64,000 nucleotides of DNA from Anas platyrhynchos (lineage: Eukaryota; Chordata; Aves; Anseriformes; Anatidae), in assembly GCF_047663525.1 (NCBI RefSeq), contig NC_092616.1, positions 6,074,501-6,138,500 of the forward strand. The letters run 5' to 3'. Position numbers and translations under genes: made by a program. The notes below the pieces were generated by a model. That model had not been told where the DNA came from. It did not search any database and saw only the letters and a program-made list of their open reading frames with translations. Shown here in pieces: positions 1 to 51,000 of this stretch (position 1 is the stretch's first letter; each line of letters opens with the position of its first letter).

Positions 1-930
1 AGTAAGCTCCCAGTAAGAGAAGTAAGCACCCAGTAAGAGCACTAAGAGCCCAGTATGACCAGTAACTTGAGCCATGGGTGCTGCTGGAGGTCCTGGGGAG
101 GCTCCTTCTCCATCAAGGAGCTCAGGTGGGCACCAGTAGGAACCAGTATGCTCCCAGTATGCTCCCAGTAAGAGCACTAAGAGACCAGTACCACCAGTAA
201 CCCCCAGTAACGTGAGCCGTGGGTGCTGCTGGAGGTCCTGGGGGGCTTCCTTCTCCATTAAGAACCTCAGGTGGGCACCAGTAGGAACCAGTAGAAACCA
301 GTATGAACCAGTATGCTCCCAGTAAGAGCCCAGTAAGAGCAGTAAGCTCTTAGTAAGAGCACTACAGTCCCAGTATGACCAGTAACTTGAGCCATGGGTG
401 CTCCTGGAGGTGCTGGGGGGCTTCCTTCTCCATCAAGGACCTGAGGTGGGCACCAGTAGGAACCAGTAGGAACCAGTATGCTCCCAGTATGAACCAGTAT
501 GCTCCCAGTAAGAGCACCAAGAGACCAGTATGACCAGCAGTGTGAGCCATGGGTGCTGCTGGAGGTCCTGGGGGGCTTCCTTTACCATTAAGGAGCTCAG
601 GTGGGCACCAGTACGCTCCCAGTATGAACCAGTATGCTCTCAGTATGACCAGTATATTCCCAGTAAGACCAGTAAGCTCCCAGTAAGAGAAGTAAGCGCC
701 CAGTAAGAGCACTAAGAGCCCAGTATGACCAGTAACTTGAGCCATGGGTGGGCCTGGAGGGCTTCCTTCTCCATCAAGGACCTCAGGTGGGCACCAGTAT
801 GCTCCCAGTATGAACCAGTATGCTCCCAGTAAGAGCAGTAAGCTCTTAGTATGACCAGGAAGCGCCCAGTAAAAGCCCAGTATGACCAGTAACCCACAGT
901 AACTTGGGCTGTGGGTGCTGCTGGAGTTCC
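1..930. repeat. Minisatellite carrying KAT8 exon fragments
   Basis: The matrix is built from short units such as CCAGTAAGAGCAGTAAG and CCAGTATGAACCAGTATG. Embedded in it every 145-195 bp is a 40-51 bp block resembling the KAT8 exon that encodes WVLLE...SIKDL, ending in an AG|GTGGG donor. Blocks lie at about 75-125, 220-270, 395-445, 550-600 and 745-785, with a partial one at 911-930. The four full blocks (75-125, 220-270, 395-445, 550-600) are about 8 nt shorter than the mammalian exon as I remember it, so the WVLLE and SIKDL parts fall in different frames; the fifth is shorter still. None looks like an intact coding exon, so the working exon probably lies left of the window. Confidence 0.7.
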
Positions 931-1961
931 TGCACCCTTCCCAGTGCTCCCAGTAACCCCGCCCAGTCCTCCCAGTGCTCCCAGTAACCCCTCCCAGTCC
1001 TCCCAGTAACCTCCCAGCACCTCTAAACCACAACCACCACCCCAAAACCCCATTAAAACCGCCCCAAACCCACCCCAAACCCCTCCCAGTCCCTCCCAGT
1101 CCCTCCCAGTGCTCCCAGTAACCCCTCCCAGTCCTCCCAGTCACCTCCCAGCACCTCTAAACCACAACCACCACCTCAAAACCCCCCTAAAACCACCTCA
1201 AACCCACCCAAAACCCCTCCCAGTCCCCCCAGTAACCCCTCCCAGTAGCTCCCAGTTCTCCCAGTCCTCCCCAGTAACCCCTCCCAGTCCCTCCCAGTCC
1301 TCCCAGTAACCCCTCCCAGTCCTCCCAGTTACCTCCCAGCACCTCTAAACCACTCTTAGACCCCCACCACCACCCCAAAACCCCCCAATTTCCCCCGAAA
1401 ACCCCTCAAAACCCCTCCCAGTCCCTCCCAGTGCTCCCAGTAACCCCAGTAACCCCCCCAGCCAGATGACCAGCATCACCCAGAACGACATCATCAGCAC
1501 CCTGCAGTCCCTCAACATGGTCAAGTACTGGAAGGGGCAGCAGGGCGGGCCCCCAGTGCCTCCCAGTGCTCCCAGTAACCCCTCCCAGTGCTCCCAGTCC
1601 TCCCAGTAACCTCTCCCAGTCCCTCCCAGTGCTCCCAGTAACCCCTCCCAGTCCTCCCAGTTACCTCCCAGCACCTCTAAACCACAACCACCACCCAAAA
1701 TCTCCCCCTAAAACCACCCCAAACCCCTCCAGTCCCCAGTAACCCCTCCCAGTCCCTTCCAGTCTCTCCCAGTCCTCCCAGTAACCCCTCCCAGTGCTCC
1801 CAGTAACCTCCCAGTACCTTTAAACCACTTTTAGACCACCACCACCACCCCAAAACCCCCTAAAACCACCTCAACCCCCCCTAAATCCCCCTCAAACCCC
1901 CTCCCAGTCCCTCCCAGTCGCTTCCAGTCCCTCCCAGTGCTCCCAGTAACCCCAGTAACCC
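931..1961. repeat. CCCAGT-type minisatellite with a recurring C-rich block
   Basis: Units of the CCCTCCCAGTCCTCCCAGTAAC type alternate with a roughly 65 bp block containing CACCTCTAAACCACAACCACC. The block recurs near 1015, 1150, 1335, 1670 and 1810. A truncated KAT8 exon copy (1462-1542) is caught inside. This is the KAT8 intron upstream of the penultimate exon in the window. Confidence 0.8.
1462..1542 (+). pseudogene. Truncated duplicate of a KAT8 exon
   Basis: This block repeats the first 81 nt of the KAT8 exon at 1969-2123, including the acceptor-side CCCCCCAG, and then breaks off into CCCAGT repeats just after the codons for KYWKGQ. It differs from the intact copy at one visible codon: Asn here (ITQND) against Thr there. 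Asn is the residue I recall in mammalian KAT8, so the broken copy keeps the ancestral state. It has no donor at its end and cannot serve as a normal internal exon. It could still compete as a 3' splice site. Confidence 0.75.
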
Positions 1962-48000: not shown

Positions 48001-51000
48001 GTCAGGGGGGCTCTACAGGGTTTGGGGGTGCCCTATAAGGTCTGGTGGGCCCTATAGGGTCTGGGGGTGCCCCATAGAGTCTGGGGGTGCCCTATAGGGT
48101 TTGGGGTGCCCTATAGGGTCTGGGGGTGCTCTATAGGATCTGGGGGTCCCCTATAGGGTCAGGGGGTGCCCTATAGGGCCGTACCTCATGGCGTTCTTGA
48201 GCAGCTCGGGCAGGATGTAGTCGAGGGTGCCCCATAGGGTCTGGGGGTGCCCTATAGGGTCGGGGGGGCTATAGGGGCCCTATAGGGTCTGGGGGTGCCC
48301 TATAGGTTTGGGGGGTCCTATAGGGTGTGGGGGTGCCCTATAGGGTCAGGGGGGCTATAGGGGCCCTATAGGGTCTGCGGGTGCCCCATAGGGTCCAGGG
48401 GGGCCCTATAGGATCCGGGGGTGCCCTATAGGGCCGGGGGGGCTATAGGGGCTCTATAGGGTCTGGGGGTGCCCTATAGGGTCTGGTGGGTCCCTATAGA
48501 ATCCGGGGGTGCCCCATAGGGTCCGGGGGGCTATAGGGACCCTATAGGGTCTGGGGGTGCCCTATAGGGTTGGGGGGCTATAGGGACCCTATAGGGTTTG
48601 GGGGTGCCCCATAGGGTCTGGGGGGTGCCCTATAGGGTCTGGGGGTGCCTATAGGGGCCCTATAGGGCCGTACCTCATGGCGTTCTTGAGCAGCTCGGGC
48701 AGGATGTAGTCGAGGGGCAGGGGGATGAAGGGGAAGCGGGCGGCCACGTGCCCGTTGATGCGCACCCGCGGCGCGTTCCCGTACTGCTGCTCGCACAGGC
48801 GCCTGCGCCCCCCCCCCCCAAAAAAAAACGTCACCCCCGGGGGTCACACAGCCCCCCCGGGGGTCACACCCACCCCCCCTGGGGTCGCACACCCCCCTCT
48901 GATGTCACCCGTCCCCCCCCAGTAGCACCCTTGGGGTCACCCACCCCCCTTAATGTCGCCTACCCCCCTTGGGGTCACCCGTCCCCCTTTAGGGTCACCA
49001 ACCCCCCCCTGGGGTCACCCCCCCCCCCCCAATGTCACTCCCCCCCCCCCCCCGGTGGTGTCCTTGGGGTCACCCACCCCCCCCGGTGGCGCCCACCCCC
49101 CTTTGGTGTCACCCACCCCCACTTGGGGTCACTTGTCCCCCCACAATGTCACACACCCCCCCTTCATGTCACCCACCCCCCTTTGGGGTCGACCCCCCCC
49201 CCCCCCAGTGGCACCCTTGGGGTCACCCAGCCCCCCCGGGGGTCACGCAGCCCCCCCTTAATGTCACCTGTCCCCCCCCAATGTCGCCCACCCCCCCCCA
49301 ATGTCACCCCCCCCCCCTTGGGGTCGCCCACCCCCCCTTAATGTCACCTGTCCCTCCCCCAATGTCACCCACCCCCCTTGGGGTCACCCCCCCCCAAATG
49401 TGACCCATATGACCCTATAGGGACCCCATAAAGACCCCAAAAGACCCTCCCAGCCCCATAACCCCCCTCTAGGAACCCCTATAACCCTATAATGACCCAT
49501 ATGGCCCTATAGGGACCCCATAAAGACCTATATGGCCCTATAGAAACCCTAAAACTCCCATATAGCCCCAAAAAAACATCCTAAGAGCCCCTATAACCCC
49601 ACAAAGACCCCAAAATAGAGCTTTCAGCCCCAAAACCCCCCTCTAGGAACCCCTATAACCCCATAAGGACCCGTATGGCCCTATAGGGACCCCATAAAGA
49701 CCTATATGGCCCTATAGAAACCCTACAGGTCCCATATAGCCCCCAAAAAAACGTCCTAAGAGCCCCTATAACCCCATAAAAACCCAAAATAACACTTTCA
49801 GCCCCAAAACCCCCCTCTAGGAACCCCTACAACCCCATAAGGACCCGCATGACCCTATAGGGACCCCTATAGCCCCTATATGGCCCTATAGAAACCCTAC
49901 AAGTCCCATATAGCCCCCAAAAAACCGTCCTAAGAGCCCTAGAACCCCATAAAGACCCCAAAGAACCCTCCCAGCCCCATAACCCACCTCTAGGAACCCC
50001 CACAACCCCATAGGGACCCGTATGACCCTATAGGGACCCCATAAGGACCTATATGGCCCTATAGAAACCCTACAAATCCCACATAGCCCCACAAAACCCT
50101 CCCTAAGAGCCCCTATAACCCCATAAAGACCCCAAAAGAACCCTCCCAGCCCCATAACCCCCCTCTAGGAACCCCTATAACCCCATACGGACCCATATGG
50201 CCCTATAGGGACCCCATGAGAACCTATATGGCCCTATAGAAACCCTACAAGTCCCATATAGCCCCCAAAAAACCGTCCTAAGAGCCATAACCCCATAAAG
50301 ACCCCAAAATAGAGCTTTCAGCCCCAAAACCCCCCTCTAGGAACCGCTATAACCCCATAATGACCCGTATGACCCTATAGGGACCCCATAAGGACCTATA
50401 TGGCCCTATAGAAACCCTAAAAGTCCCATATAGCCCCCAAAAAAACGTCCTAAGAGCCCCTATAACCCCATAATGACCCCAAAAGAACCCTCCCGGCCCC
50501 ATAACCCCCCTCTAGGAACCCCTATAACCCCATACGGACCCATATGGCCCTATAGGGACCCCATAAAGACCTATATGGCCCTATAGAAACCCTACAAGTC
50601 CCATATAGCCCCCAAAATAACGTCCTAAGAGCCCTATAACCCCACAAAGACCCCAAAATAGAGCTTTCAGCCCCAAAACCCCCCTCTAGGAACCCCTACA
50701 ACCCCATAAGGACCCGCATGACCCTATAGGGACCCCTATAGCCCCTATATGGCCCTATAGAAACCCTACAAGTCCCATATAGCCCCCAAAAAAACGTCCT
50801 AAGAGCCCCTATAACCCCATAAAGACCCCAAAAGAACGCTTTCAGCCCCATAACCCCCCTCTAGGAACCCCTATAACCCTATACGGACCCATATGGCCCT
50901 ATAGGGACCCCATAAGGACCTATATGGCCCTATAGAAACCCTACAAATCCCATATACCCCCACAAAACCTAAAAAATCATTTTTAAGAACCCCTATAACC

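What the first reader, a model, noticed from the sequence alone, without database searches (positions are those of the whole stretch)
1..48810. Minisatellites that capture and multiply exon fragments of three neighbouring genes
Broken exon copies lie inside arrays beside KAT8 (six pieces of one exon, one of the next), the protease gene (three pieces) and BCKDK (two pieces of exon 8). Each copy keeps one exon edge, often with its splice site, and then breaks off into the array unit. The same outcome in three genes suggests that array expansion here regularly reaches into exons, leaving decoy splice sites. I know of no named system for this; the general mechanism is inference.
Basis: partly seen in the sequence, partly recalled or inferred. 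Interest (0 to 1): 0.8.

Follow-up and report, generated by a model that had tools for sequence, protein, structure and literature searches.

The report
Exon stuttering in duck gene introns
In a bird that is probably a duck, the repeat arrays filling the introns of three neighbouring genes contain broken copies of the adjoining exons with their splice sites, a recently named phenomenon of bird genomes (exon stuttering) that here looks like ordinary tandem duplication spilling over exon edges.

Summary
Fourteen exon pieces from four exons lie in the adjacent introns of KAT8, a trypsin-like protease gene and BCKDK; ten are inside the window. KAT8: nine pieces of one exon edge with donor plus one fragment (six in the window, four just upstream), and one acceptor-edge piece of the next exon (84/85). 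Protease: one piece, not three. BCKDK: two. All 14 are direct and on the side facing their source edge; 13 keep the splice site. Four of 45 exons examined gave pieces. Sixteen paralogue exons on other chromosomes gave nothing comparable.

This genome is not chicken; evidence points to a duck. My reading is tandem duplication with one breakpoint in the array and one inside the exon. Only duplications that leave a complete outer exon survive, so each piece keeps one edge. Two details I did not see in the parts of that paper I read: the nine KAT8 pieces descend from one capture and score below the published cut-off; and one captured piece keeps Asn where the working exon now has Thr.

The parts
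60..125 (+). Piece 1 in window of the KAT8 exon 9 3' edge, with donor CAG|GTGGGC
202..270 (+). Piece 2 of the KAT8 exon 9 3' edge, with donor
380..445 (+). Piece 3 of the KAT8 exon 9 3' edge, donor GAG|GTGGGC
535..600 (+). Piece 4 of the KAT8 exon 9 3' edge, with donor (left end approximate)
730..786 (+). Piece 5 of the KAT8 exon 9 3' edge, with donor and an extra internal deletion (left end approximate)
894..933 (+). Fragment 6 of KAT8 exon 9, no donor
1458..1542 (+). 5' edge of KAT8 exon 10 (4 acceptor bases + 81 exon bases), acceptor kept, breaks off into the array; codon Asn at 1484-1486 where the working exon has Thr
1082..2049 (+). Two successive colinear units (1082-1542 and 1599-2049), each intron array plus acceptor plus the start of KAT8 exon 10
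   Evidence: local alignment score 535
1969..2123 (+). Intact KAT8 exon 10 (source)
2211..2274 (+). Last KAT8 coding exon
5731..5880 (-). Last exon of the trypsin-like protease gene (source)
   Evidence: Pfam PF00089
6584..6652 (-). 5' edge piece of the protease last exon, acceptor kept, one C missing
46638..48673 (-). BCKDK intron filled with CCCTATAGGG-type array (TRF cover 0.93)
47535..47580 (-). 3' edge piece b of the BCKDK exon, with donor
48185..48227 (-). 3' edge piece a of the BCKDK exon, with donor; 60-nt exact run with the source (43 exon + 17 intron)
48674..48802 (-).

Best explanation
This is exon stuttering. The longer introns are mostly local minisatellite arrays, which in the cases read here begin within some ten bases of the exon edge. 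Tandem duplication (unequal recombination, slippage or repair) sometimes has one breakpoint in the array and the other inside the exon. Such a duplication leaves one complete exon at the outer end and, on the intron side, a piece that holds only the facing edge, its splice site and some array. Donor-edge pieces therefore lie downstream of their exon and acceptor-edge pieces upstream. The coding exon is undamaged, so the change can drift. Later array turnover can multiply the piece with its unit (nine KAT8 copies at 145-195 bp spacing) and let it decay. Shown: pieces, orientation, side, edges, locality of the KAT8 exon 9 unit, a shared single ancestor of its nine copies, colinear duplicated units for KAT8 exon 10. 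Inferred: the duplication mechanism, neutrality, and that decoy splice sites are mostly ignored.
For: 14 of 14 pieces are direct, in the adjacent intron and on the predicted side; 13 of 14 keep the splice site. The KAT8 exon 10 piece and about 370 bp of upstream intron are colinear with the working copy, and its 40-nt intron flank matches the source flank better than all 844 other windows of the intron tried. Nine KAT8 exon 9 copies share one 8-bp deletion and four substitutions against the exon: one capture, then multiplication. In a whole-genome DNA search the unit with exon content was found only at KAT8 exon 9 and intron 9 among the scored candidates; the matches elsewhere cover only the array part, query bases 213-286. 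The phenomenon is published for chicken with the same anatomy.
Against: The flank test is mixed (windows as good as the source flank, at 40, 100 and 200 nt): KAT8 exon 10, 0 of 844, 3 of 770, 24 of 648; BCKDK b, 3 of 631, 3 of 557, 17 of 434; BCKDK a, 208 of 631, 36 of 557, 111 of 433; protease, 28 of 461, 258 of 387, 88 of 263. In the last two the arrays are too uniform to tell, or the unit was not simply tandem. Only four independent events. No reads, second individual or RNA could be examined. The whole-genome locality search was answered for KAT8 only.
Confidence: 0.8

Rival explanations
1. Repair-mediated capture: a break in the intron is filled by copying nearby chromosomal DNA, so that exon pieces are inserted rather than tandemly duplicated; the arrays only multiply them afterwards.
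For: Pieces are local, and for two pieces (protease; BCKDK piece a) no colinear intron flank could be demonstrated. A paper on such duplications in vertebrates exists (PMC2671141; listing and start of abstract seen).
Against: Random insertion would give either orientation and internal pieces; 14 of 14 are direct and on the predicted side, 13 of 14 hold the facing edge with splice site. KAT8 exon 10 shows a duplicated unit that spans the acceptor.
Confidence: 0.12
2. Assembly artefact in difficult GC-rich arrays.
For: No reads are available here; the region is GC-rich and repetitive, and the protease gene shows possible single-base errors.
Against: Nine KAT8 copies differ from one another (mean pairwise identity 0.88, 36 pairs) yet share derived changes; the sequence between the BCKDK pieces is not duplicated exactly. 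For the chicken gene PHF8 the general structure of such introns was verified in raw nanopore reads (PMC12954441).
Confidence: 0.04
3. The pieces are functional alternative exons or regulated decoy splice sites kept by selection.
For: Splice sites are kept in 13 of 14 pieces; nine donors alike or nearly alike follow the KAT8 donor.
Against: Each piece has only the one exon edge. Extending KAT8 exon 9 or the BCKDK exon past its own donor reaches an in-frame stop within about 20 codons, before the first decoy donor, and reading on from the KAT8 exon 10 piece reaches one after 49 codons; the exon 9 pieces carry an 8-bp frame-breaking deletion; the protease piece has a 1-base deletion.
Confidence: 0.04

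Closest known systems
Exon stuttering / sequence stuttering, Hron et al. 2026, Genome Biol Evol, PMC12954441 (seen: abstract; sections 7, 9 and 16 in full; part 1 of 2 of section 8; passages of others; no supplement)
   Same: Partial copies of the lateral part of a coding exon with its splice site in the adjacent intron, within local tandem-repeat arrays, exon left intact, absent from the paralogues shown on other chromosomes, repeat units of tens to hundreds of bases.
   Different: Described for chicken; the parts read mention repeat expansions in other birds only in passing. KAT8 and BCKDK are not in its main text. Here the genome is not chicken; one exon gives nine or ten old diverged copies below its 42.1-bit cut-off; one working exon has changed after capture. 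Length variation between individuals could not be tested.
Repair-mediated duplication by capture of proximal DNA (PMC2671141, listing and start of abstract only)
   Same: Local duplication of short stretches of neighbouring DNA.
   Different: Insertion model; as I understand it, it predicts no one-sided edge rule and no array units.
Minisatellites in general (recalled)
   Same: Head-to-tail arrays of short units with higher-order units.
   Different: Here units extend across exon-intron borders.

Membership tests
Exon stuttering (Hron et al. [quoted passage not shown]
   14 of 14 pieces direct and in the adjacent intron
Exon stuttering (Hron et al. 2026) | Copied part lies at the exon border with donor or acceptor | tested here: met
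   13 of 14 pieces; the fragment at 894-933 lacks it
Exon stuttering (Hron et al. 2026) | Intron heavily covered by tandem repeats | tested here: met
   TRF cover 0.77 (KAT8), 0.98 (protease), 0.93 (BCKDK) of the three introns; exons of KAT8 0.06, protease 0.09 and BCKDK 0.00
Exon stuttering (Hron et al. 2026) | blastn-short score of at least 42.1 bits (the screen's confidence threshold, not part of the definition) | tested here: inconclusive
   Met by 4 pieces (161, 109, 85.7, 77.8); the KAT8 exon 9 pieces reach at most 38.2, just above the maximum of 36.2 over 30 shuffled regions
Exon stuttering (Hron et al. 2026) | Source coding exon left intact | tested here: met
   KAT8 exon 10 and the BCKDK exon read through and match solved KAT8 and BCKDK chains; KAT8 exon 9 reads through, matches recalled human KAT8 and the MOZ_SAS model. 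The protease source exon reads through, but the first protease exon found seems frame-shifted
Exon stuttering (Hron et al. 2026) | Concentrated on dot chromosomes, absent from paralogues elsewhere | tested here: inconclusive
   Paralogue part met: 14 exons of three KAT paralogues on C6, C23, C28 score 21-31 against 3 kb on either side (two slightly exceed their own shuffle maximum, 29 vs 27 and 31 vs 26), two PDK-type exons 22 and 20 against 1.5 kb on either side. C30 is 6.8 Mb; its status as a dot chromosome was not established
Exon stuttering (Hron et al. 2026) | Intron length varies between individuals | not testable with these tools
   Only one assembly held

The most novel reading that the evidence does not exclude
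Exon stuttering is the visible half of a symmetrical process: array breakpoints enter exons from both sides, but only duplications that leave an intact outer exon persist, so the surviving pieces are dated fossils of earlier exon states (as with KAT8 Asn to Thr). Some captures, such as the diverged KAT8 exon 9 family, may predate the duck-chicken split, and published counts then miss the old ones.
Probability: 0.35. Interest if true: 0.55.

Novelty: new member of a known kind. Interest (0 to 1): 0.33.

Why it matters
It shows the newly named exon stuttering in a bird other than chicken, with enough anatomy to propose a simple mechanism and a test. It warns gene annotators about decoy exon edges beside real ones, and suggests that the published bit-score threshold misses old captures.

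Tried and rejected
A chance match was rejected with shuffles per intron and for the region. Spread of exon pieces around the genome: the exon part of the KAT8 exon 9 unit was found nowhere else among the scored candidates (only the best candidates are scored); the same search for BCKDK did not complete, and none was made for KAT8 exon 10 or the protease. More coding stretches were tested (FUS 10, of which 3 overlap earlier ones, VKORC1-like 3, a second protease-like gene 5, one kinase): none of 19 gave a convincing piece; FUS exon C scored 28 against its shuffle maximum of 26 and the kinase tied at 32. A search for further protease pieces found none by score or by reading parts of the gene and the 13-14.4 kb array. 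Microhomology at breakpoints was looked at: the KAT8 exon 9 break lies near CAGTTAC in the exon against CAGTAAC in the array, but four events are too few for a test. Pfam on unique open frames of the neighbourhood named only a kinase, in 1 of 10, and nothing in 10 of the FUS region. Pfam on single exons matched 4 of 7 (MOZ_SAS and VKOR below their cut-offs); of the three without a match, the KAT8 exon 9 stretch had been given in a wrong frame by me. Papers: five searches; only PMC12954441 and PMC11745021 (abstract, outline and passages; no mention of introns, KAT8 or BCKDK in its main text) were opened.

Full report
What the window is. The window is G000:C30:6074501-6138500 of a 1.26-Gb, 42-contig genome. 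It holds the 3' end of KAT8 (+), a trypsin-like protease gene (-), FUS (-), BCKDK (-) and part of a VKORC1-like gene (-) (with recalled human proteins as probes). Window translations matched BCKDK and KAT8 chains in the PDB, and 4 of 7 single exons matched Pfam models: trypsin, RRM, and, below their cut-offs, MOZ_SAS and VKOR. It is a bird but not chicken: mitochondrial cytochrome b differs from the best PDB chain at 33 of 379 places (my count on the alignment; that this chain is chicken is recalled). Two delta-crystallin exons match delta-crystallin chains 47/47 and 35/35; that the best of these entries are duck proteins, and that 16,604 bases is the mallard mitochondrial length, is recalled.

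The introns. Of 25 introns examined, the 17 longer than 400 bp are mostly tandem arrays (TRF cover 0.65-0.99); the eight shorter than 130 bp are not (0-0.33). Exons of KAT8, the protease and BCKDK have 0.06, 0.09 and 0.00. In 14 kb at each of the three KAT paralogues on C6, C23 and C28 the fraction of repeated 14-mers is 0.004, against 0.53 in 14 kb around KAT8.

The pieces. KAT8 exon 9 (L012:9139-9289) is followed by nine pieces of its last 70 or so bases, each with the donor (CAG|GTGGGC in seven, GAG|GTGGGC in two), at spacings of 145-195 bp, and one fragment without donor; four of these ten lie in L012 and six in the window. All nine share an 8-bp deletion and four substitutions against the working exon, so one captured piece was multiplied. 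The best pairs of copies (1.00, 0.98, 0.94) are not neighbours, which points to higher-order duplications. KAT8 exon 10 has one acceptor-edge piece at 1458-1542 (84/85), and the alignment continues colinearly through about 370 bp of upstream intron. The protease last exon has one acceptor-edge piece at 6584-6652, and BCKDK has two donor-edge pieces.

Controls. Scores of the pieces were 80-165 for the four recent ones and 38-49 for eight KAT8 exon 9 pieces, against per-intron shuffle maxima of 28-37. With blastn-short over 184 kb, 29 exons gave four strong pieces (78-161 bits) against at most 36.2 bits in 30 shuffled regions; KAT8 exon 9 pieces reached only 38.2, and low-complexity matches of KAT8 exon 1 (to 42.1) and protease exon C (38.2) were dropped. 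Paralogue exons (14, two) scored 20-31; two of the 14 slightly exceeded their own shuffle maximum. Of 45 distinct coding stretches examined in the neighbourhood (29, three of them overlapping), four gave pieces.

How it works. Every piece is direct, in the adjacent intron, and on the side that faces its own edge. A tandem duplication with one end in the array and one in the exon gives exactly this, since the complete exon stays at the outer end. I regard this as the mechanism (inference), with the KAT8 exon 10 unit as its clearest case. The flank test is mixed: strong for KAT8 exon 10, fair for BCKDK b, not supportive for the protease and BCKDK a. The exon-bearing KAT8 exon 9 unit was found only at that exon and intron among the scored candidates of a whole-genome search, while its CAGTA array part also matches at C30 5.84 Mb and 6.23 Mb and C31 6.19 Mb, so the array motif recurs but the exon capture is local.

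Consequences for the genes. Extending KAT8 exon 9 or the BCKDK exon past its own donor gives an in-frame stop within about 20 codons, before the first decoy, and reading on from the KAT8 exon 10 piece gives one after 49 codons, so use of a decoy would probably be harmful or silent through decay of the message (inference). The KAT8 exon 10 piece encodes ITQND, as in the solved KAT8 chain shown, while the working exon encodes ITQTD: the simplest reading is that the piece preserves the older state.

What is known. Hron et al. 2026 describe the same anatomy in chicken, call it exon stuttering, count 115 genes and 236 introns, report length variation between individuals, and only speculate on mechanism. 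KAT8 and BCKDK do not occur in its main text; its supplement could not be read. So this is a new set of cases of a known kind, in another bird.

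Noticed in passing
window 25200-28900 and 32400-35500: Two FUS stretches, between an SYGQ/RGG exon and the RRM exon and at the 5' part, are nearly free of arrays (TRF cover 0.17 and 0.07) while 29000-32400 and the next intron have 0.95 and 0.98. FUS introns 6 and 7 are reported as retained in partly processed transcripts (PMC12285722, start of abstract); if these are those introns, conserved introns may resist array growth.
   Followed up: partly
window 12862-12984: First protease exon found: parts of the catalytic histidine region appear only in different frames (HVCGG in one, VTAHC in another), suggesting single-base indels by decay or assembly error.
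   Followed up: partly
window 1484-1486 and 1991-1993: Captured KAT8 exon piece has Asn (AAC) where the working exon has Thr (ACC); the solved KAT8 chain shown has Asn.
   Followed up: partly
window 39936-41625: Open frames of 302-563 aa overlap in five frames over a low-complexity array, one serine-rich; probably not a gene.
   Followed up: no
L018:3090-4586 (+): 499-aa open frame matching the protein kinase model PF00069 (E 5.1e-46), downstream neighbour.
   Followed up: no
window 13054-14345: Array with 160-320 bp higher-order units, some 94% alike, upstream of the first protease exon found; no exon content seen.
   Followed up: partly
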